A DNA stretch of 64,000 bases from Leptotrichia wadei. Lineage in GTDB: Bacteria; Fusobacteriota; Fusobacteriia; Fusobacteriales; Leptotrichiaceae. Positions 1,616 to 24,194 of the stretch are shown piece after piece (position 1 is the stretch's first letter; each line of letters starts with the position of its first letter). The translations under genes and the position numbers were made by a program. The DNA lies in assembly GCF_007990445.1 (NCBI RefSeq), contig NZ_AP019841.1:62001-126000 (forward strand), in the 5' to 3' direction. The notes beneath the pieces were generated by a model, which saw nothing but the letters and a program-made list of their open reading frames with translations, was not told the origin of the DNA and searched no databases.

Positions 1616-2722
1616 ATGGATTTTCATGGTGGAAATATTTATAAAATATTCAGGGAAAAAAATATAAAAGAAATACTGGATTACAGTTCAAATATTAATC
1701 CTTACGGAGTGCCTGAGAGCCTAAAGCAGAAGATTATTGAAAATATTGGGATTCTTGAGAGGTATCCTGACCCTGATTATGTGGAATTACGTGAAAAATT
1801 GGCTCATCTGAATAAAGTTGAGCTGGAAAATATTGTGCTGGGAAATGGTGCAACAGAAGCTATATTTTTGTTCATAAAAGTAATAAAGCCCGAAAAAGTG
1901 CTGATTGTGTCGCCTACTTTTGGTGAATATGAAAGGGCAGTAAGAGCGTGCAAAAATTCTGAAAGTCAGAAAATTGAAATTGAATATTTTGAATTAGAAG
2001 AAAAAGATGAGTTTAATCTTAATATTGGGAAATTAAAAAAGGAACTTGAGAAAAAATATGATCTGGCAATAATTTGCAATCCAAATAATCCGACTGGAAA
2101 ATTTTTAAAAATGGCTGAAACAGAGGAAATTCTGAGAGAATGTAATAAATATGATACAAAGTTATTTATTGACGAGGCATTTATCGAATTCCTAGAGGAC
2201 GGTCTAAAGGAAAGTATTGTAAACAGTGGGGAAAATAAGAAAAATTTATTTGTAACTCGTGCATTTACAAAATTTTTTGCTATTCCAGGACTACGATTGG
2301 GATATGGAATTTATTTTGACAAAAATTTAGAAAAGAAAATCGCTGAAAAAAAAGAGCCGTGGAGCGTGAATAATATTGCTGAAATAGCTGGAATAACGGT
2401 GCTTGATGATACAGAATATATCGAAAAGACATTAAACTGGATAACAGAAGAAAAAAAATATATGTATGAAAAACTGGATGAAATTTCAGGAATAAAGTCT
2501 TATAAAACAGAAGTAAACTTTATTTGTGTAAAAATAAAGGATGAATTGATTTCTAAAGGGCTGAATGTGAAAAAGTTGAGGGAAAAAATGATGGAAGAAG
2601 GAATTTTAATAAGAGATGCATCCAATTTTAAATTTTTGGATGAAAGATTTTTTAGGCTGGCAATTAAGGATAGAAGGAGTAACGACAGAGTTATTGAGGC
2701 TTTGAAAAAAAATTTAGAATAG
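1616..2722 (+). CDS. cobD: Threonine-phosphate decarboxylase (PLP aminotransferase fold)
   Basis: CobD decarboxylates L-threonine O-3-phosphate to (R)-1-amino-2-propanol phosphate, which forms the lower-ligand arm of cobalamin. The N-terminal 'HGGNIYK' and 'DYSSNINPYG' blocks are typical of CobD rather than of histidinol-phosphate aminotransferase. The PLP-binding lysine is expected in 'VTRAFTKFFAIPGLRLGYG', and 'CNPNNPTG' is the usual PLP-fold signature. The start at ATG 1616 is preferred over an in-frame TTG at 1598, because the ribosome site AAGGAG (1604-1609) lies between them. The length (368 aa) fits the family. HisC-type activity cannot be fully excluded, but the cobalamin neighbourhood supports CobD. 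Confidence 0.88.
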   Translation: MDFHGGNIYKIFREKNIKEILDYSSNINPYGVPESLKQKIIENIGILERYPDPDYVELREKLAHLNKVELENIVLGNGATEAIFLFIKVIKPEKVLIVSPTFGEYERAVRACKNSESQKIEIEYFELEEKDEFNLNIGKLKKELEKKYDLAIICNPNNPTGKFLKMAETEEILRECNKYDTKLFIDEAFIEFLEDGLKESIVNSGENKKNLFVTRAFTKFFAIPGLRLGYGIYFDKNLEKKIAEKKEPWSVNNIAEIAGITVLDDTEYIEKTLNWITEEKKYMYEKLDEISGIKSYKTEVNFICVKIKDELISKGLNVKKLREKMMEEGILIRDASNFKFLDERFFRLAIKDRRSNDRVIEALKKNLE

Positions 2723-2733
2723 AAGATAGGCAA

Positions 2734-2853
2734 TTGTAAAAGTAAGCTAACTAATATCATAAGGGGTCAAGTCCTCTTGTTAGAGAGCAGAAAAAATAAA
2801 AAAATTAAAAATTTTAGAATACTGTATTTATTAGAATTTTTAGACTTTTACAA
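2734..2853 (+). repeat. Dispersed repeat, copy 1 (TTGTAAAAGT ... ACTTTTACAA)
   Basis: Inverted ends TTGTAAAAGT (2734-2743) and ACTTTTACAA (2844-2853) enclose 100 bp. The interior carries one CAAGGGGTC-type half palindrome at 2761-2779. The right end closely matches the copies ending at 9535 and 50320. The right end lies 33 nt before the start of the next gene, the same placement as in the other copies. Confidence 0.6.
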
Positions 2854-2886
2854 ATAGTTAGAATAAAAAAGAAAGGAATGTTATTT

Positions 2887-3606
2887 ATGAAGAGGAAATT
2901 ATTGTTTATTTTATCATTGTTTTTAATTTTCTCAATTTTTTCTTTTGGGGAAAACTTTCCAGAAAAGGCAAAAAATATAAATGGATTCGTTCCAAAAGGC
3001 TGGAAAACTGTTCTTTCGGCTAAAGGAGATTTAAATAATGATAAGCTTGAAGATGTTGCCATCATTATCGAAAAAACTGATAAGGCAAATATTGTAAAAA
3101 ACGAGAATCTTGGCTCTGAATATTTAAACTTAAATCCAAGAATACTTTTGGTTTTATTCAAGCAAAATAATGGAAGCTATATTTTGGCAAGCAAGAATGA
3201 TAAAGGTTTTATCAAAAGCGAAGGAAATAAGGAAAGTCCAGCTCTTATGGATACTTTAGACAGCATTAGCATAAAAAATAATATTTTAAAAATTAAACTT
3301 AATTATTTTTTAAGTGCGGGAAGCTGGTCTGTAACACAAAATACCTACACTTTTAGATTTCAAAACCAAAAGCTTGAACTTATTGGATTTGACAATAATT
3401 CATTTATGAGAAATTCTGGCGACCAAGAGAAACTTAGCATTAATTTTTCAACTAACAAAGTAAAAATCATTGCTGGCGGAAATATTTTTGATGAAAAGGC
3501 AAATAAACCTAAGGAGGAATGGAAAACTGTTAATATTAAGAAAAAATATGTGTTAGATGAGATGACAAGCGATATAGTCGGTGAGATTATGAAATATATT
3601 TATTAG
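2887..3606 (+). CDS. Hypothetical secreted protein
   Basis: The first ~23 residues form a clear Sec signal peptide (a Lys/Arg-rich start, then a Leu/Ile/Phe core, ending 'SFG'). The mature part contains 'KGDLNNDKLEDVAIIIEK', which resembles a single FG-GAP/VCBS-like calcium loop often seen in exported proteins of unknown role. ATG 2887 is chosen over ATG 2878 because the ribosome site AAAGGA directly abuts 2878 but is correctly spaced from 2887. A hairpin terminator follows. The function is unknown. A periplasmic or outer-surface location is likely. Confidence 0.75.
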   Translation: MKRKLLFILSLFLIFSIFSFGENFPEKAKNINGFVPKGWKTVLSAKGDLNNDKLEDVAIIIEKTDKANIVKNENLGSEYLNLNPRILLVLFKQNNGSYILASKNDKGFIKSEGNKESPALMDTLDSISIKNNILKIKLNYFLSAGSWSVTQNTYTFRFQNQKLELIGFDNNSFMRNSGDQEKLSINFSTNKVKIIAGGNIFDEKANKPKEEWKTVNIKKKYVLDEMTSDIVGEIMKYIY

Positions 3607-3616
3607 TATTTTAAAT

Positions 3617-3660
3617 GGGGAATTCTTATGACTTATAAGATCTTCCCTATTATTTTATTT
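3617..3660 (+). terminator. Rho-independent terminator
   Basis: GGGGAA-TTCTTAT and ATAAGA-TCTTCCC form an imperfect hairpin around 'GAC', followed by the T-rich TATTATTTTATTTTG. It lies directly after the secreted-protein gene. Confidence 0.6.
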
Positions 3661-3684
3661 TGTTATAATTAATATTAAATTGAA

Positions 3685-3713
3685 TTGACAAAAAATGGAA
3701 AAGTTAATAGAAT
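3685..3713 (+). promoter_or_regulatory. Sigma70-type promoter before the hemA leader
   Basis: TTGACA (3685-3690), a 17-nt spacer and TAGAAT (3708-3713) form a near-consensus promoter. Transcription would start near 3720, about 270 nt before hemA and immediately ahead of a structured segment. Confidence 0.7.
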
Positions 3714-3719
3714 GTAAGT

Positions 3720-3835
3720 AGACAACAATTTACGGAGTAAAAGTTTCCCTTGATGTAAGATAGAAAAGAGTTGGGAATACTAGAAGTTCTGTAGAACAGT
3801 CATTTGATTAGGGAAAGGAGTTTCCGTAAGTATTT
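3720..3835 (+). ncRNA. Structured leader or small RNA upstream of hemA
   Basis: Two nested helices can form: TTACGGA (3730-3736) with TCCGTAA (3823-3829), and TTTCCCT (3744-3750) with AGGGAAA (3810-3816). An internal hairpin GTTCT/AGAAC lies at 3786-3797. A strong promoter ends only a few bases upstream. There is no open reading frame. I do not recognise a known riboswitch, and the T-box and B12-box motifs are absent. It could be the 5' leader of hemA or a free small RNA. Confidence 0.45.
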
Positions 3836-3877
3836 AATACAGCCAAAATTATAAAAATTTTGTTGATACTGCAATTG

Positions 3878-3897
3878 CAAGAGATCAAGATCCCTTG
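3878..3897. repeat. Imperfect CAAGGGGTC-type palindrome
   Basis: CAAGAGATCAAGATCCCTTG is related to the perfect palindrome at 1533-1552 and to the copies at 2761 and 9217. It lies in the hemA leader. Confidence 0.4.
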
Positions 3898-3989
3898 TCA
3901 GGAAATAAATAAAGTATAATTTCTATTTTTTAAAAGGGATTTAGTATAAATTATAAATAAATAAAATAAAAAAACGGAGAGAGAGAAAA

Positions 3990-5030
3990 ATGAATGAAAA
4001 TTTAGTAAAAAATTTTTATATTCTAAGTTTTAGTTATAAAAATTTGAGTTTGGAGGAAAGGGAAAAGTTTGTAAAAGAAGGGTATAGACATATTTTGGGG
4101 GAGTATTTGGAAAAAAGGGTTATAAAGGGGTATGTGGCTGTTGAAACTTGCCTTAGGATAGAGTTTTATCTGGATGTTAGCAGGAAATTTGAAATTGAGA
4201 GGTTAAAGAGAGATTTTAGGGTTGAGAAGATGAAGGACTATGAAGGGACTGAGGCGGTGCATTATTTGCTTCGAGTTATTTGTGGGCTAGATTCGATAAT
4301 AAAGGGGGAAGATCAAATTCTTGTGCAGCTTAAAAAGGCTTATTTTGAGGCTCTTGACAAGGAGACTACATCTTCATTCTTGAATATAATATTTAATCAG
4401 GCGATAGAAACTGGGAAGAGATTTAGGGCAGAAAGCAGGATAAATGAGAAAAATATTTCACTGGATTCGATTGCTGTGAAATTTATAAAGACAAAGTTTG
4501 AAAGTCTTGAAGATAAAAAGGTATTTGTAATTGGAGTGGGAGATTTGAGCCAGTCGATTCTTGCGCTTCTTCACAAAATGAATAATTGTCATTTGACGAT
4601 GACAAATAGGAGCTTGAAAAAATCCATTGAGTTGCAAAAAGTGTTTCCAGATGTCCAAACGGCGGAATTTAGTGAAAAATATAATATTATAAAAAATATG
4701 GATATTGTGATAAGTGCCACTTCTGCACCGCATTTGATAATTGAAAAGGCTAAAATTGAGGATATTTTAAATGATGGAAAGAAAAGGTTTTTTCTTGATT
4801 TGGCAGTTCCTAGAGATATTGAAATTAGTATTGGAGAATTTGAGAATGTTTCCCTTTATCATTTGGAGGATATTTGGGATGAATATAATAAAAATGTGGA
4901 AAAACGAGATGAAATTGTGGAAAAGTATTTTTACATTATTGAGGAGCAGCTGAAAAAAATAGCGGAAAAACTTGAAAAAAGAAGAAAATATACAAATCAG
5001 AAAAATATCGAGATGGGTGAAAATGGATGA
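3990..5030 (+). CDS. hemA: Glutamyl-tRNA reductase
   Basis: HemA reduces glutamyl-tRNA(Glu) with NADPH to glutamate-1-semialdehyde, the first committed step of C5-pathway tetrapyrrole synthesis. The catalytic cysteine is in 'ETCLRIEFY' (usually TCNRxE). The 'GLDSIIKGEDQILVQ' block and the NADPH-binding 'VFVIGVGDLSQSI' segment follow. At 346 aa it is shorter than most HemA proteins (about 400-430 aa), mainly at the C-terminal dimerisation region. The ribosome site GGAGAG precedes the ATG. Its stop overlaps the start of hemC (ATGA), so the two are translationally coupled. The next gene completes uroporphyrinogen III. Confidence 0.92.
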   Translation: MNENLVKNFYILSFSYKNLSLEEREKFVKEGYRHILGEYLEKRVIKGYVAVETCLRIEFYLDVSRKFEIERLKRDFRVEKMKDYEGTEAVHYLLRVICGLDSIIKGEDQILVQLKKAYFEALDKETTSSFLNIIFNQAIETGKRFRAESRINEKNISLDSIAVKFIKTKFESLEDKKVFVIGVGDLSQSILALLHKMNNCHLTMTNRSLKKSIELQKVFPDVQTAEFSEKYNIIKNMDIVISATSAPHLIIEKAKIEDILNDGKKRFFLDLAVPRDIEISIGEFENVSLYHLEDIWDEYNKNVEKRDEIVEKYFYIIEEQLKKIAEKLEKRRKYTNQKNIEMGENG

Positions 5031-5992
5031 AATCAAATAAAATAATTATTGGAACGAGAGGGAGCATTTTGGCACTTGCACAGGCAGAAAAGGTGAAGGA
5101 AATACTGATTGAAAAATATGATGAATTAAGGGAAAATGAAGATTTTTTTGAAATTGAAGGATTTGATAAAAGGAAATCGCTGGAAATAGAACTGAAAGTC
5201 ATAGTTACAAAGGGGGACAAGGACTTGCGTGATTTTACAAAAATAAAGGGAACGACACAAAAGGACTTGTTTGTGAAAGAAATCGAAAAGGAAATGCTGG
5301 AAAATAAAATAGATTTGGCGGTGCATTCGTTAAAGGACATGCCACAGAATACTCCAGAAGGGCTTTTGAATGCGTGTTTTCCAATGAGGGAAGATAATTG
5401 TGATGTGCTTGTTTCAAAAAGTGGGAAAAAATTAAAGGAACTTGATGAAAACTCTGTGATTGGGACAGGGAGCGTAAGACGGGAAAGGGAGCTTTTGAAT
5501 TTGCGAAATGATGTAAACATAAAAGCAATTCGTGGAAATATTCACACAAGACTTAAAAAACTTGATGATGGGGAATATGATGCGATTGTGCTGGCTGCGG
5601 CTGGATTAAAGAGAGTTGGACTGGAAAGCCGAATTACTGAATATTTTGATACAGATTTTTTTATGCCTGCACCAGGACAAGGAATTTTGTGTATTCAATG
5701 CAGGGAAAATGATAATAAAATACGGCATCTTCTGGAAATTATAAATGATGATGAGGTTACAATGATGTGTGAAGCCGAAAGGGAATTTTCAAAAATTTTT
5801 GATGGAGGCTGCCATACTCCGATAGGCTGTTCATCGGTTATTGAAGGAGATACATTAAAATTAAAGGGAATGTTTAATGATAATGGAAGCAGAATGCTTA
5901 AAGAAGTTGAAGGAAATAAGGAAAATCCGAAGGAAATTGCACAAAAATTGGCTGAAGAAATAAAAAAGGAGCTGAAAAATGAGAAAAGGTAA
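5027..5992 (+). CDS. hemC: Hydroxymethylbilane synthase (porphobilinogen deaminase)
   Basis: HemC polymerises four porphobilinogens into hydroxymethylbilane. The N-terminal 'IIGTRGSILALAQAE', the 'HSLKDMP' motif, 'GTGSVRRE' and the catalytic aspartate region 'LAAAGLKR' are all present. The cysteine that binds the dipyrromethane cofactor lies in 'GGCHTPIG' (about residue 263). It overlaps hemA by 4 bp upstream and cobA-hemD by 14 bp downstream, so the three genes form a tight operon. The length (321 aa) is normal. Confidence 0.95.
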   Translation: MKSNKIIIGTRGSILALAQAEKVKEILIEKYDELRENEDFFEIEGFDKRKSLEIELKVIVTKGDKDLRDFTKIKGTTQKDLFVKEIEKEMLENKIDLAVHSLKDMPQNTPEGLLNACFPMREDNCDVLVSKSGKKLKELDENSVIGTGSVRRERELLNLRNDVNIKAIRGNIHTRLKKLDDGEYDAIVLAAAGLKRVGLESRITEYFDTDFFMPAPGQGILCIQCRENDNKIRHLLEIINDDEVTMMCEAEREFSKIFDGGCHTPIGCSSVIEGDTLKLKGMFNDNGSRMLKEVEGNKENPKEIAQKLAEEIKKELKNEKR

Positions 5993-7582: not shown

Positions 7583-7915
7583 AAAAAAGTAAAAATATTC
7601 TGGATAAACTTGTATTCACCCAAGAGAGTGGAGCAAGTCACTTTACGGAATTATAATAAGTAACACATTTTGGAATTGATAAAGACTTACATATAAGTGA
7701 AATTCCGAAATGTTAGGATAATTGTACATCCTTTAATATATTTTATATTATAAAAGCAATCTTGAATATCTTTGATTAAGTTTTCAAGTTACGGTATGGA
7801 AGTGAAATTTCTATTTATCAAATTAAATGAAAGTATTAGAAATTTTGTATAAAAATAAAAAAACTGCTCTTTTTGTCTGGCTCATATTCAAGACTTTTAG
7901 AGCAGTTTATATTTT
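7583..7915 (+). ncRNA. Candidate structured small RNA beside htrA
   Basis: About 330 nt lie between a strong promoter and a bidirectional hairpin terminator, with no convincing rightward gene. Several helices can be read. ACTTG-TTCAC pairs with GTGGA-CAAGT at about 7609-7640. A long stem CATTTTGGAATT / AATTCCGAAATG at about 7663-7716 has an inner ACTTA/TAAGT hairpin. GGAT/ATCC lies near 7722-7736. The fold has some features of 6S RNA (a long bulged stem) but also differs from it. RNase P RNA and SRP RNA signatures are absent. Confidence 0.5.
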
Positions 7916-19359: not shown

Positions 19360-19387
19360 TTGACAAATGTAGAAAAAGTTATATAAT
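19360..19387 (+). promoter_or_regulatory. Promoter of the cbiM riboswitch transcript
   Basis: TTGACA (19360-19365), a 16-nt spacer and TATAAT (19382-19387). It lies only five bases right of the insertion repeat, so the insertion left it intact. Confidence 0.8.
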
Positions 19388-19400
19388 ATTTATAGAGAAT

Positions 19401-19556
19401 AATAGGTGTTTTGCAAACTTAATAAGGAAATCGGTTGAAATCCGATACAGCCCCCACTACTGTGAAACTGACGAAAGCGTGATAACCACTGAGATTGAAG
19501 GGATCTTGGGAAGGAAGTGAGTAGGTTGAAGTTAGTCAGGAGACTTGCCTAATATT
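19401..19556 (+). promoter_or_regulatory. Adenosylcobalamin riboswitch
   Basis: The B12 box AGTCAGGAGACTTGCC is at 19534-19549. Upstream are 'GGTTGAAATCCGATACAGCCCCC', 'ACTGTGAAACTGACGAAAG' and 'CCACTG', the conserved helices of the cobalamin aptamer. It precedes cbiM, a cobalt-transport gene normally repressed by adenosylcobalamin. Confidence 0.95.
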
Positions 19557-19692
19557 GATATATTATAGATTTTCTGGGAAGGGGAAATTTGATATACATC
19601 AGTAAATGAATCAATGGTGATTTGTTCCATTAGCACATAGTGAATGTACGACGTTAGTACAAATATTGTTTTGATGGGATTTGACGTGTATT

Positions 19693-19721
19693 AAATTCGG
19701 CTTTTAGCTGATTTTTTTTTG
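19693..19721 (+). terminator. Riboswitch expression-platform terminator
   Basis: TCGGC and GCTGA pair around TTTTA, followed by about nine T residues, 40 nt before cbiM. It probably forms when adenosylcobalamin is bound. Confidence 0.65.
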
Positions 19722-19762: not shown

Positions 19763-20470
19763 ATGAAAAAGAGAACATTATTATTTTTAGTTTTAACCAG
19801 TATGCTTTTAATAGGTGTAAACGGGTTTTCAATGCATATTATGGAAGGATTTCTACCGTTAAATTGGGTTATTGTATGGTTTGTTGTGTGTATTCCGTTT
19901 TGGATTTTGGGGATAAAAAAACTTCAAACTGTTTCTAAAGGAAGTGTTAAGGATAAAATGACGCTTGCATTGGCGGGAGCATTTATTTTTGTGTTATCGG
20001 CGTTGAAGATTCCGTCAGTTACAGGGAGTTCGTCACATCCGACAGGAGTAGGACTTTCAGCTATTTTGTATGGACCATTTGTAACTTCAATTTTAGGGAC
20101 AATTGTATTGATATTTCAAGCTGGATTACTTGCACATGGAGGATTTACGACTCTTGGAGCGAATACGGCTTCAATGGCAATTGTTGGACCAATTGTTTCG
20201 TACTTGATTTATAAAGGACTTGCTAAGAAGAATAGAGCGGTTGCAATATTTTTGGCAGCAGCAATAGGGGATCTTGCAACTTATGTTGTTACATCTTTTC
20301 AGTTGGCACTTGCGTATCCATCGCCTGAAGGTGGAGTACTTGCTTCATTTATTAAATTTGGAATGGTATTTGCAGTAACTCAAATTCCACTTGCTATAAT
20401 TGAAGGATTGCTTACAAATGTTGTAATGAATATACTTGACAAATATGAAGTAAAAGGGGTGGAAGAATAA
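19763..20470 (+). CDS. cbiM: Energy-coupling-factor cobalt transporter, S component CbiM
   Basis: CbiM is the substrate-specific membrane subunit that captures Co2+. After a signal-like first segment comes the hallmark '[10 protein letters not shown]', whose N-terminal His region binds cobalt in the family. Six to seven membrane segments follow, with '[21 protein letters not shown]' typical of CbiM. The ribosome site AAGGAG is well placed. The stop overlaps the cbiN start (TAATG). The gene is controlled by the upstream riboswitch. Confidence 0.96.
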
Positions 20471-22716
20471 TGGATAAGAATAAAAATAAAAGTGTTTTTA
20501 AAAAGAATATTATTTTATTAAATAAAGCAAGAACACTTGCGACTTTAGTCGTAAGATGAATTGCACAAAAATTTTAGTAAGCATATAGGGAAACTTGTAT
20601 GTAGACACGGAGCAAAACCGTGCAACAAAGAAACTGAATTGCTGGGAACTCTTAAAGCTGGTATAACCACAACATAATACCTAAATTAGAAAATGGTATA
20701 AGTGTGATGGTGGCGAAAGCAGAAAAAATATACTAGATGGTGCAAGGTTAAATCCTAAACATTGAGCCGTACATATAGAAAGGAATATAATAGACAATCA
20801 GCAGCTAAGCCTGAAAAGGAAAGTTCAACGACTATCCCTCGTGAGGGGAGTACAATACAAGCAATTGGTATTGGAAGTAGTTTCGCCTAAGGTGCCAAAA
20901 TACACTATGGATAAGATATAGTCTGTGCTTGTTAGAGATAACAAGAAGTTCATAAGATATAAAATCTTTGGGAACTGCATAAGTAGTAGCGAACTTATGT
21001 GAACGACACTTCCCACTGTTGTGGGGTTTTAAAAACTTTAAAAATATTTAAAAATAAATAAAAAATATTACTTTTTGATAGTTAAAATGTAGAATATATA
21101 GTATAATATCTCTGATGAAAAGGAGGTGATTATATATGTATTTAACATTAAAACAACAGGTAAAACATCTTAGTAAAAAAGAGTTTAGGAATTTAAAATA
21201 TTTATCTCATATAGCCAAGAACTTAACTAATGAAGCTATATATAATGTTAGACAACACTATTTTCAAAATAAAAAATATTTAAGTTATAATGAAAACTAT
21301 AAAATGCTTAAAAACAGTGAGAATTACAAGAAATTAAATTCTAATATGGCTCAGCAAATTCTAAAAGAAGTAGATGGAAGTTTCAAATCGTTTTTTGGAC
21401 TTTTAAAACTTGCTAAAAACGGTCAATACGATAATAAAAAAATAAAATTACCTAAATATCTTGATAAAGATGGTTTTACAACTCTTGTTATAGGTTTTGT
21501 AAGATTAAAAGATGATATTCTGATAGTTCCTTATTCAAATTCATTTAGAAAGACACATAAGGAAATCGCAATAAAGCTACCACCAGTATTAAAAGGCAAG
21601 AAGATAAAAGAGATTAGAATAATACCCAAACAACATTCTAGGTACTTTGAAATTCAATATATTTATGAGGTAGAAGAAGTTCAAAGGGAATTAAATGAAA
21701 ACAATGTACTAGGAATTGATTTAGGTATAGATAATCTTTGTACTTGTGTTACAAATTCTGGATCTTCATTCATAATAGATGGTAGAAAATTAAAATCAAT
21801 AAATCAATACTATAATAAGACAAATGCAAAATTACAAAGTATAAAAGATAAGCAAAAGATTGAGCGAACGACATTAAGGCAAAAGAGAATAGCTAGAAAG
21901 AGAAATAATCGTATAAATGATTATCTTTCAAAAGCGGCAAGAATAATTGTAAATTATTGTCTTAATAATGATATAGGACAAATAGTTCTAGGATATAACG
22001 AGGATTTTCAAAGAAAATCAAATATAGGAAGTGTAAATAATCAAAATTTTGTAAATATACCATATGGAAAATTAAGAGATAAATTAATATACCTATGTAA
22101 ACTATATGGAATAGAATTTAAACTGCAAGAAGAGAGTTATACATCAAAAGCAAGTTTCTTTGATGGAGATGAAATCCCGATATATGATAAAGAAAATCAA
22201 AAAGAATATATATTCAGTGGAAAAAGGATAAAAAGAGGACTGTATCAAACAAGAGCAGGTAAACTCATAAATGCAGATTGTAATGGAGCATTAAATATTT
22301 TAAGAAAAAGTAAAGTTGTGGATTTAAGTATCCTATACAATAGAGGTGAACTGGACACGCCTAAAAGAATAAGGATAGCATAGGACTATCAAACTTCTTA
22401 GAAAATTTTTGAATATTTTTAAAGATTTTAGAACCCTGTGACTTTAGTCGTGGGAGGTTCAGTGGTTTTAATACTTTTGATAGGTGTCGTACCATTACTT
22501 CTTGTAAAATCTGAATTTGGTGGTTCAGATGACAAGGGAGAAGAAATGATTAAAACGATAAAACCTGATTATAAGCCTTGGGCTAAAAATTTAATAGAAT
22601 TGCCTGGAGAGGAAACTGAAAGTTTACTTTTTGCGTTACAAGCAGCACTAGGTGCAGGAATTGTAGGATATGTTTTAGGATATTTCAAAGGTGAAAGAAA
22701 AAATGCTAATAGATAA
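20470..22716 (+). CDS. cbiN: Cobalt transport protein CbiN, split by an IStron-like element
   Basis: Exon 1 (20470-20518) encodes [16 protein letters not shown] plus the first base of a Leu codon. Exon 2 (22463-22716) continues 'VLILLIGVVPLLLVKSEFGG...YKPW...EETESLLFALQAALGAGIVGYVLGYF', the classic CbiN core. Joining T20518 to T22463 gives an uninterrupted 100-codon frame of normal family length, with both membrane segments intact. CbiN is the small auxiliary subunit that helps CbiM load cobalt. Unspliced mRNA would give only a peptide that ends inside the element. A GTG in the element end (22438) could allow some translation of exon 2 alone. Confidence 0.85.
20540..21030 (+). ncRNA. Group I intron ribozyme core
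   Basis: Conserved core segments are readable. P4 strands TGCTG (20640-20644) and CAGCA (20799-20803) pair. P7 strands GACTAT (20830-20835) and ATAGTC (20918-20923) pair perfectly inside the typical 'GTTCAACGACTA' and 'AAGATATAGTC' blocks. A GTAAG sequence at 20577-20581 could pair with the exon end TTTAT as P1, with a terminal U-G pair. The 3' splice site would be at the far right end of the element, after G22462. Confidence 0.85.
21136..22383 (+). CDS. tnpB: TnpB RNA-guided nuclease, IStron type
   Basis: A 415-aa protein with a RuvC-like core. The first Asp is in 'VLGIDLGIDNLCT' and the last in 'INADCNGALNIL'. The usual Glu in the 'VxExL' position is replaced ('IVLGYNEDF'). A conserved Glu occurs later in 'LQEESYTSKASFFDGDEIP', as in the TnpB branch with a rearranged active site. 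No CxxC zinc finger is present. The ribosome site AGGAGGTG is good. TnpB proteins use the element's 3' RNA as guide to cut the empty target and favour element retention. No tnpA is present in the element. Confidence 0.9.
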   Translation: MYLTLKQQVKHLSKKEFRNLKYLSHIAKNLTNEAIYNVRQHYFQNKKYLSYNENYKMLKNSENYKKLNSNMAQQILKEVDGSFKSFFGLLKLAKNGQYDNKKIKLPKYLDKDGFTTLVIGFVRLKDDILIVPYSNSFRKTHKEIAIKLPPVLKGKKIKEIRIIPKQHSRYFEIQYIYEVEEVQRELNENNVLGIDLGIDNLCTCVTNSGSSFIIDGRKLKSINQYYNKTNAKLQSIKDKQKIERTTLRQKRIARKRNNRINDYLSKAARIIVNYCLNNDIGQIVLGYNEDFQRKSNIGSVNNQNFVNIPYGKLRDKLIYLCKLYGIEFKLQEESYTSKASFFDGDEIPIYDKENQKEYIFSGKRIKRGLYQTRAGKLINADCNGALNILRKSKVVDLSILYNRGELDTPKRIRIA

Positions 22717-23386
22717 AATATCATATACGAATCCCATAAAAAATATTAATCCTGGAATAAAATTTACGTTGTCAATGATGACATTAGTATTTTTGCTTTA
22801 CACGGGAAGTAAAGTAGTATTTATTTTTAATCTTACACTATTTAATTTACTTCTTTTATTTGTAGTAAAAGTGAAAGTGAAAGATTTACTAAAGCTGAAT
22901 TTTGTTCCAGCTTTATTTATTTTAACAACTGTAATTTCATTATGGCTAATAAAGGCGGATATTTGGACATTTTTGTTACGTTCATTTTCGTCAATATCAG
23001 TAATTTATTTTCTTATTTGCTCAACACCAGTTGTAGATTTAGACTATATATTTGAAAAAATGAGATTTCCAAAAATTTTTAGAGAAATGTTTTTGTTGAT
23101 TTATAGATATATTTTTTTGTTGTTTGAGAATAAGGAAAGACTCAAAAATGCACAGGAAGTAAGACTTGGATACAGTAGTTTTAAGAATGGGATGAAATCA
23201 TTTCCAATGTTAGTGGTAGCTATATTAAAAAAAACATATTACTATAATCTTAATTCTATAAAGGCTGTAGAATCAAGACTGGGAAAGGAATTTATCTTTT
23301 CTCATAGAAAATACAAAAAAATTGGATTTGAAACTATTTTTGTAATAATAATAGTTGCAATAAATTTATATTTGGTGGTAAAATAA
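22703..23386 (+). CDS. cbiQ: ECF transporter transmembrane (T) component CbiQ
   Basis: CbiQ couples the ATPase CbiO to CbiM. The protein has about five membrane segments and the T-component signature helices near 'AQEVRLGYSSFKN' and 'AVESRLGKEF'. ATG 22703 is chosen, with AAAGGTG upstream. It overlaps the end of cbiN by 14 bp, so it depends on translation through exon 2 of cbiN. Length 227 aa. Confidence 0.92.
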   Translation: MLIDKISYTNPIKNINPGIKFTLSMMTLVFLLYTGSKVVFIFNLTLFNLLLLFVVKVKVKDLLKLNFVPALFILTTVISLWLIKADIWTFLLRSFSSISVIYFLICSTPVVDLDYIFEKMRFPKIFREMFLLIYRYIFLLFENKERLKNAQEVRLGYSSFKNGMKSFPMLVVAILKKTYYYNLNSIKAVESRLGKEFIFSHRKYKKIGFETIFVIIIVAINLYLVVK

Positions 23387-23387
23387 A

Positions 23388-24194
23388 ATGCTTAAACTTG
23401 AAAATATAACTTTTTCGTATGATAATGAAACAGAAGCGTTAAAAAATGTGACTTTGAATATTGAAAAAGGAAAGAAAACATTATTTCTTGGGGAAAATGG
23501 CTCAGGAAAATCAACTTTATTTTTAATAATGAATGGACTCTTGAAGGCACAAAAAGGAGACATTTATTTTGAGGGGAAGAAGGTTAAACATAAAAAAAAG
23601 GATTTGGAGGAATTGAGAAGAAAAGTTGGAATAATTTTTCAAGATCCTGAAATACAAATTTTTGCTCCGTTAGTTTTTCAAGAAGTGGCTTATGGACCTG
23701 AAAATCTTGGATATTCTGAGGAAAAAGTAGAAGAAAATGTTAATAGAGCAATGAAGGAAATCAATATTGAGGAGTTGAGGGACAGACCTTGTCATCATTT
23801 GAGTTATGGTCAGAAAAAACGGGTTTCAATAGCGGCAATTACAGCAATGGAGCCAGAATTGTTGATTCTAGATGAACCTACAGCTTGGTTGGATTCGAAA
23901 AATACAAAAAGAGTTTCTGAAATTTTAGATAATTTTTCTAAAGCTGGGAAAACACTTGTAGTTTCGACACACGATACAGATTTTGCATATGAATTCGCTG
24001 ACTATATTTATGTTCTTGATAAAGGGAAAATTGTAAGACAAGGTAGTAGAGACGAAGTTTTTGAGGATTTTGAATTTTTGAAAAAATTAAATTTGAATGT
24101 TCCAAATATTTTGAAAATTAAAAGTTATCTTAAGTATAGAAATCTTGATGAAAATGATTATTGTAAATTTTTGGAGGAAAAAAATTTGTTATGA
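23388..24194 (+). CDS. cbiO: ECF cobalt transporter ATPase CbiO
   Basis: An ABC ATPase with Walker A 'GENGSGKST', Q-loop 'IIFQDPEIQIF', signature 'LSYGQKKRVSIA', Walker B 'LLILDEPTAWLD' and switch His 'STHD'. It powers cobalt uptake through CbiQ and CbiM. Only one base separates it from cbiQ, and its last bases overlap the cbiA start (ATGA). Length 268 aa, typical. Confidence 0.95.
   Translation: MLKLENITFSYDNETEALKNVTLNIEKGKKTLFLGENGSGKSTLFLIMNGLLKAQKGDIYFEGKKVKHKKKDLEELRRKVGIIFQDPEIQIFAPLVFQEVAYGPENLGYSEEKVEENVNRAMKEINIEELRDRPCHHLSYGQKKRVSIAAITAMEPELLILDEPTAWLDSKNTKRVSEILDNFSKAGKTLVVSTHDTDFAYEFADYIYVLDKGKIVRQGSRDEVFEDFEFLKKLNLNVPNILKIKSYLKYRNLDENDYCKFLEEKNLL

What the first reader, a model, noticed from the sequence alone, without database searches (positions are those of the whole stretch)
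20470..22716. IStron-like element in cbiN: predicted splicing restores an exact CbiN frame
The element in cbiN combines a group I intron core (P4 TGCTG/CAGCA, P7 GACTAT/ATAGTC in their usual sequence context) with tnpB. The base before the element is U (20518) and its last base is G (22462), as group I splice sites require. Joining 20518 to 22463 yields a 100-codon CbiN with no gap, and cbiQ depends on translation through it. Cobalt uptake may therefore depend on ribozyme splicing. Clostridial IStrons are the known precedent. One inside a riboswitch-controlled cobalamin operon of a likely Fusobacteriota is, to my knowledge, notable.
Basis: partly seen in the sequence, partly recalled or inferred. 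Interest (0 to 1): 0.92.

Follow-up and report, generated by a model that had tools for sequence, protein, structure and literature searches.

The report
Self-splicing transposon inside cobalt-transporter gene
A mobile DNA element that carries its own RNA-splicing ribozyme sits inside a vitamin B12 (cobalt-uptake) gene of a Leptotrichia bacterium; this kind of element is known, but in this genome full copies sit inside many genes, including the only copy found of an essential replication helicase, so the cell probably depends on ribozyme splicing.

Summary
Confirmed. Window 20519-22462 is a group A IStron (group I intron plus IS605-type tnpB), following TTTAT and ending TTCAG, inside cbiN of a B12-riboswitch-led cbiMNQO operon of a Leptotrichia. 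Relatives have uninterrupted cbiN, two with the identical TTTAT|TGG site, so the predicted junction restores the ancestral 100-codon frame. The ribozyme fold is supported by covariation. The 5' exon UUUAU pairs with GUAAG in 38 of 38 IStrons; three intron-only relatives pair UUGAU with GUCAG. IStrons are already published from Fusobacterium and Leptotrichia buccalis (LbISt1), so this is a new member of a known kind. What stands out is the genome: all 14 full-length copies found lie in sense in a gene. Exact excision gives a sense frame of at least 100 codons in 13 of 14, against 3 of 21 intron-less IS605 relatives, and the fourteenth is the third group I intron of cobK. One copy splits the only dnaB found. 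A copy with a damaged ribozyme sits two codons before its gene's stop. Splicing itself is inferred; no RNA data were available.

The parts
19387..19566 (+). cobalamin riboswitch leading the operon
   Evidence: Rfam RF00174, 97.3 bits; a 12-of-12 sigma-70-like promoter just upstream at 19360-19387 and a terminator-like hairpin at 19697-19711 (25 promoter-like sites found against 18.6 expected)
19763..20470 (+). cbiM
   Evidence: Pfam PF01891, E 8e-55
20470..20518 (+). cbiN, first exon, ending in the target pentamer TTTAT (20514-20518)
   Evidence: empty site in L021 and L022
20519..22462 (+). whole IStron (1944 nt), the predicted intron
   Evidence: same ends in 14 of 14 full copies of this genome
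20536..20555 (+). left-end hairpin (subterminal palindrome), inside the P1 loop
   Evidence: paired in 87% of cells over 38 copies; one of its eight pairs is unpaired in 21 of 38
20577..20581 (+). internal guide sequence GUAAG pairing with exon UUUAU (P1)
   Evidence: invariant in 38 of 38 IStrons; GUCAG with UUGAU in 3 of 3 intron-only relatives
20581..20999 (+). group I core, P2 to P9.1 (P3 20630-20635/20879-20884, P4 20640-20644/20799-20803, P7 20830-20835/20918-20923, P9 20928-20945, P9.1 20978-20999)
21023..21055 (+). left arm of the AU-rich inverted repeat around tnpB
   Evidence: 32 predicted pairs with one mismatch
21136..22383 (+). tnpB, 415 aa
   Evidence: Pfam PF01385 E 1e-30 and PF07282 E 4e-8; open frame of at least 414 aa in 11 of 14 copies
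22405..22437 (+). right arm of the inverted repeat
22440..22462 (+). right-end palindrome and terminus ...GGTTCAG with the terminal G of the intron
22463..22716 (+). cbiN, second exon (its first ~20 nt would also be the guide of a TnpB guide RNA: inferred)
22691..23386 (+). cbiQ, overlapping the end of cbiN
   Evidence: Pfam PF02361, E 6e-18
23388..24194 (+). cbiO-like ATPase
   Evidence: Pfam PF00005, E 3e-34; the name cbiO rests on gene order

Best explanation
A group A (IS200/IS605-type) IStron. It is transcribed as part of the riboswitch-led cbiMNQO mRNA. The ribozyme folds; its guide GUAAG selects the 5' splice site after UUUAU and the terminal G (22462) marks the 3' site; the AU-rich inverted repeat loops out tnpB so that the two sites meet. 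Splicing joins 20518 to 22463 and restores CbiN. As DNA the element was placed after TTTAT, probably by a Y1 TnpA in trans, and TnpB probably cuts emptied TTTAT sites with a guide RNA that reads into the 3' flank. Shown by sequence: the element, its fold, the empty sites, the copies. Inferred: splicing in the cell, dependence of cobalt uptake on it, TnpA and TnpB action.
For: Ends and target of group A IStrons in 14 of 14 full copies here (definition). Fold: 98.3% of cells paired and 29 pairs with double changes against 9.8 in shuffles and 5-11 in slid controls (its first helix was a wrong P1 but adds none of the 29); RNAalifold finds 105 pairs, 39 with compensated changes. Exon and guide change together: UUUAU/GUAAG in 38 of 38, UUGAU/GUCAG in 3 of 3. 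Empty sites. All 14 copies are in sense in a gene; sense frame of at least 100 codons on exact excision in 13 of 14 against 3 of 21 intron-less elements, p = 5e-6. Only dnaB found is interrupted, 12 of 12 other same-genus genomes have it whole. The ribozyme is damaged in L015, where splicing matters least.
Against: No RNA evidence. No Rfam group I match; the best sub-threshold match there was rli56, E 0.17. The dnaB and cobK copies each have one mismatched P4 pair. P1 never varies among IStrons, so its support comes from three intron-only rows. The one TnpA found sits beside an intron-less tnpB with different ends, so present mobility is doubtful. In cbiN a ribosome would read 13 codons into the intron, which may hinder folding.
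Confidence: 0.9

Rival explanations
1. A plain insertion whose ribozyme no longer works: cbiN is disrupted and cobalt uptake is lost or covered by another transporter.
For: Splicing was not observed; tnpB is broken in 3 of 14 copies, so some parts of copies do decay.
Against: No pair of the modelled fold is broken in the cbiN copy. The core is 97-99% identical among copies while P8 and other tips vary (72-87%) with compensation. Both halves of cbiN keep their frame, and the downstream cbiQ and cbiO are open.
Confidence: 0.06
2. The gene is restored at the DNA level: TnpA removes the element in part of the cells, and no RNA splicing is needed.
For: One Y1 TnpA gene in the genome; precise excision would give the same junction.
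Against: That TnpA lies beside an intron-less tnpB, whose family has other ends. It does not explain a conserved, covarying ribozyme or the damaged ribozyme being found only where splicing matters least. The 13 other copies differ from the cbiN copy by 7-14%, which does not suggest recent movement.
Confidence: 0.03

Closest known systems
LbISt1, group A IStron of Leptotrichia buccalis (Tourasse et al. 2014, PMC4227781; abstract, sections 14 and 15, part 1 of section 20 and passages read)
   Same: Same genus, group IA2 intron plus IS605-type ORF B and no whole ORF A; group A ends (downstream of TTGAT, ATTAT or TTTAT; 3' end TCAG)
   Different: One copy of 1760 nt there; 14 full copies of 1890-1952 nt here. 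Its sequence was not at hand, so identity was not measured
FnISt1 and FnISt2 of Fusobacterium nucleatum (PMC4227781; PMC1924603, passages)
   Same: Same phylum, tnpB plus group I intron
   Different: All five IStrons of the 2007 genome follow TTGAT, and four of five were predicted inactive; here TTTAT, and no full copy lacks the core
CdISt1 of Clostridioides difficile (through PMC4227781)
   Same: Type element of group A; splicing shown by earlier work that the survey cites
   Different: 9-24 copies per strain, some with ORF A; other host
IS605/IS1341-like elements without intron in the same genome (L098-L126)
   Same: TnpB family, subterminal palindromes, RE ...GTTCAC against ...GTTCAG
   Different: No intron; 3 of 21 analysed have a sense frame of at least 100 codons across the join
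IStron splicing against TnpB guide RNA (Zedaveinyte et al. 2024, Science; seen only as a reference in PMC12558985; content recalled)
   Same: Model in which the 3' end serves as splice site and as border of the guide-RNA scaffold
   Different: No guide RNA was tested or shown for this element

Membership tests
Group A IStron | inserted directly downstream of TTGAT, ATTAT or TTTAT | tested here: met
   TTTAT in 14 of 14 full copies here and 24 of 24 from other genomes; definition
Group A IStron | 3' end TCAG | tested here: met
Group A IStron | group I intron of class IA2 with P7.1 and P7.2 and an extended P9 | tested here: met
   P7, P7.1, P7.2, P9 and P9.1 paired; class by topology, not by an Rfam match
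Group A IStron | U-G pair at the 5' splice site, flanked by pairs on both sides | tested here: met
   38 of 38
Group A IStron | IS part after GAACGA or a similar motif, ORF region enclosed by an inverted repeat | tested here: met
   TGTGAACGAC after P9.1; 32 predicted pairs, longer than the 6-10 bp given for group A
Group A IStron | ORF B of IS200/IS605 type | tested here: met
   PF01385 and PF07282
Group A IStron | self-splicing | not testable with these tools
   only indirect:
RNA-guided TnpB with guide RNA | guide RNA at the element's 3' end reading into the flank; recognition of the target pentamer | tested here: inconclusive
   the geometry fits, but the Rfam IS605-orfB-I model hit only another element at 7599-7798

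The most novel reading that the evidence does not exclude
This bacterium lives by ribozyme splicing. At least 16 group I introns (14 IStrons and two intron-only elements) interrupt its genes, among them the only dnaB found and a cobK with three introns, and B12 supply needs at least four splicing events (cbiN and three in cobK). Splicing efficiency (GTP, Mg2+, translation) could then act as a shared control over replication, repair and B12 genes, with the host genes holding the ribozymes under selection.
Probability: 0.15. Interest if true: 0.85.

Novelty: new member of a known kind. Interest (0 to 1): 0.57.

Why it matters
It offers a natural test of whether a bacterium relies on ribozyme splicing for essential genes. 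The contrast with intron-less relatives in the same genome shows how a self-splicing intron changes where a transposon is found. A damaged ribozyme only where splicing hardly matters, and a copy at the same nagB site in three genomes, suggest that host genes keep the ribozyme under selection long after insertion. The cbiN copy also places tnpB inside a riboswitch-led operon, which makes its expression easy to vary.

Tried and rejected
Rfam scans of the element and of the cobK locus for a group I intron: no match. phmmer of TnpB against PDB: no match. Scan of named genome contigs with TnpB: two Synergistales contigs only; blastn found their tnpB (and one right end, one short left-end match) but no ribozyme.

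First P1 (element 33-37) rejected: its pairs were inconsistent (helix 1), and that strand is the 3' arm of the left-end hairpin. The guide at 59-63 replaces it.

Codon phase of the junction: 10 of 13 in phase 2 in this genome (L007 left out), but 10/3/10 for 23 junctions of other genomes, as in the background of 96/42/74; pooled p = 0.013, found after looking, so not claimed.

Control with intron-less elements: 29 loci, of which 7 were left out as truncated or diverged on the left and L103 because its ends were not found, leaving 21. Seven of the 21 have a sense frame of at least 60 codons across the join (71, 150, 474, 64, 88, 63, 108 codons, with up to 2 nt slack because their ends are less certain). 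By eye I called only L113 and L099 coding, which gave p = 5e-8. The plain cut-offs give 14/14 against 7/21 at 60 codons (p = 6e-5), 13/14 against 3/21 at 100 (5e-6) and 12/14 against 1/21 at 200 (1e-6); I report the 100-codon figure.

Notebook entry 2 wrongly says that the start codon of L007 is formed at the junction; there the element lies between ribosome-binding site and ATG.

Caps: one search scored five candidates per genome, so 24 copies in seven other genomes is a lower bound, and genomes without a listed copy are not proven free.

Full report
WHAT IS THERE. The element runs from 20519 to 22462 (1944 nt) and interrupts cbiN, second gene of a cbiMNQO operon behind a cobalamin riboswitch at 19387-19566. 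Removing it joins 20518 to 22463 into a 100-aa protein that matches Pfam CbiN. CbiN was found in 24 of 60 genomes examined, the host included. In the 23 others it is one piece, and ten of these align over all 100 residues at 88-99% identity. At DNA level the junction lies in an ungapped block in 23 of 23; L021 (98.7% identical, from a genome with another genus label) and L022 (94.7%) read TTTTAT|TGGTTTT, while the other same-genus empty sites nearest to them read TTTTAA|T and so lack the target. The host is a Leptotrichia: its 8-kb contig matches a plasmid of L. wadei over 33% and plasmids of L. shahii and L. hofstadii over 3% and 2%; the first 12 kb of another contig match an L. hofstadii plasmid over 10%.

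THE RIBOZYME. I aligned the 5' parts of 37 IStrons (14 of this genome and 23 of the 24 from others; L082 was added) and three intron-only relatives. RNAalifold gives 105 pairs, 39 with compensated changes, among them P2, P3, P4, P8 and P9; it cannot show the P3/P7 pseudoknot. A structure that I named, with 80 pairs including P7, has 98.3% of cells paired and 29 pairs with changes on both sides, against 9.8 in shuffles and 5-11 in slid controls. Its first helix was a wrong P1, which adds none of the 29. P3 is replaced on both sides in four of its six pairs in the intron-only rows. P7 never varies and so says nothing by itself. The right P1 is exon UUUAU with GUAAG at element 59-63, continued by UAAA/UUUA: nine pairs, invariant in 38 of 38. 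Introns that follow TTGAT have GUCAG at that place, 3 of 3. Splice guide and insertion target are thus the same pentamer. An AU-rich inverted repeat with 32 predicted pairs encloses tnpB.

COPIES IN THIS GENOME. One search found 14 full copies (the 13 others 86-93% identical to the cbiN copy), one with deletions in the ribozyme (L015), two derivatives of about 310 nt and two intron-only relatives. All 14 follow TTTAT and end GGTTCAG; 11 of 14 keep tnpB open. All 14 are in sense in a gene. In L001-L012 the longest frame across the join arises at exact excision: cbiN, a glycosyltransferase, a restriction specificity subunit, an arginase-family enzyme, an MFS transporter, an Mfd-like helicase (only Helicase_C matched; Mfd by eye), a HAD hydrolase, an unidentified surface-protein-like frame, dnaB, queA, a second glycosyltransferase and nagB (families). 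For the HAD gene (L007) the element lies between ribosome-binding site and ATG. L013 splits the start codon of an O-methyltransferase, AT|G (215 codons at exact excision; a join 2 nt shorter gives 219). L014 gave only a 60-codon frame and looked intergenic. It is the third group I intron of cobK: exon 1, intron of 648 nt after TTGAT, exon 2, intron of 542 nt after TTGAT, exon 3, IStron, exon 4. The joined protein matches CbiJ/CobK, E 7e-62. cobK is in one piece in ten of the 12 other same-genus genomes (two of these matches contain one TAA), and is split at the same first two sites in G002 and G003; G003 has no IStron at the third site. No further intron-only copy was found in the genome.

DNAB. 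The genome has two DnaB matches only, residues 1-318 and 317-478, on the two sides of copy L009, which sits at the Walker B motif (recalled motif). The 12 other same-genus genomes each have one uninterrupted match. DnaB is essential in bacteria where it was studied (recalled), so splicing of this copy is the simplest way for the cell to live. Caution: this copy and the cobK copy each have one mismatched P4 pair.

CONTROL. The genome has 45 TnpB matches: 29 without intron, 15 in IStrons and one fragment. Of 22 intron-less copies with both ends, 21 could be analysed. A sense frame of at least 100 codons across the join exists in 3 of these 21 (L113, L099, L118) and in 13 of 14 IStrons, p = 5e-6; at 60 codons the counts are 7 of 21 and 14 of 14, p = 6e-5. 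L113 seems to interrupt a transporter-like frame near its start and L099 lies four codons before a frame's end. In the window, 212 of 810 TTTAT sites are in sense inside ORFs of at least 150 codons. L015, whose ribozyme lacks element positions 56-225 and 246-268, sits two codons before its gene's stop, and the element supplies TAA at once. The two ribozyme-less derivatives appear to lie between genes. The ribozyme core is 97-99% identical among the 14 copies, its tips 72-93%, tnpB 93% (third codon positions of intact copies 88%). This fits selection on splicing through the host gene, as the 2014 survey argued for IStrons in general.

OTHER GENOMES. One search listed 24 near full-length copies in seven other genomes (a lower bound). 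All 24 give a sense frame on exact excision; 23 frames have at least 131 codons, L048 only 68. Segments match UvrB, MutL, RuvB, guanylate kinase and cobalamin adenosyltransferase (start codon formed at the junction in the last two) and MTHFR. nagB has a copy at the same site in G000, G002 and G003; L082 and L093 share a site; queA is hit at three different sites. The 38 copies are therefore not 38 independent events.

HOW IT MOST LIKELY WORKS. Transcription from the riboswitch-led promoter, folding, splicing after UUUAU and after the terminal G, translation of CbiN; the splicing step is inferred. In cbiN a ribosome would read 13 codons into the intron before a stop; the survey notes that early stops protect intron folding, so this site may splice less well than others. 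One Y1 TnpA was found, beside an intron-less tnpB with other ends, so present mobility is doubtful. TnpB as an RNA-guided nuclease is inferred from family knowledge.

COMPARISON. The defining features of group A IStrons are met, except splicing, which could not be tested. By host, LbISt1 of L. buccalis is the nearest published element. The survey reports 118 of 202 insertions (58%) intragenic and 1-6 copies per strain outside C. difficile; here 14 of 14 full copies. It also says that IS elements mostly lie outside genes and that selection maintains splicing, so the principle is not new. Text searches for IStron (40 of 43 papers listed), TnpB with group I intron, five related terms (15 of 23 listed), Leptotrichia with group I intron and group I intron with cobalamin biosynthesis showed no paper on IStrons in cbiN, cobK or dnaB. 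Subscription papers and supplementary tables were not searched, so absence in print is not established.

Noticed in passing
L094:1490-2137, 2555-3096, 3223-5122 (own genome C1:224989-228621): cobK (precorrin-6A reductase) is interrupted by three group I introns: two intron-only elements after TTGAT and one IStron after TTTAT.
   Followed up: yes
L009 (own genome C1:689546-691435): An IStron splits the only dnaB found in the genome at its Walker B motif.
   Followed up: partly
L015 (own genome C1:477296-479063): The one near-complete copy with a deleted ribozyme part lies two codons before its gene's stop, where it supplies a stop codon itself.
   Followed up: partly
L012, L050, L088: nagB carries an IStron at the same site in three genomes, which suggests an old insertion kept by descent; queA is hit at three different sites (L010, L049, L087).
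   Followed up: partly
alignment A1, columns 201-240, 455-500, 540-590: Peripheral helices (P5 extension, P8, P9 extension) occur in a few alternative versions that are mixed among copies and genomes, as if helices were exchanged between copies.
   Followed up: no
L139 (Paenibacillus larvae plasmid), L140 (Finegoldia magna pFMC): IStron-like relatives: blastn matches reach from the ribozyme through tnpB to the right end (67% and 73%); L139 has a second ribozyme-like stretch without tnpB match. Neither species is in the survey's Table 1.
   Followed up: no
L016, L017 (own genome C1:1984443-1984754, 880949-881260): Two ~310-nt derivatives that keep both ends but lack ribozyme core and tnpB; they appear to lie between genes.
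   Followed up: partly
window 7599-7798: IS605-orfB-I RNA (RF03065), which marks an intron-less IS605-type element in the window.
   Followed up: no
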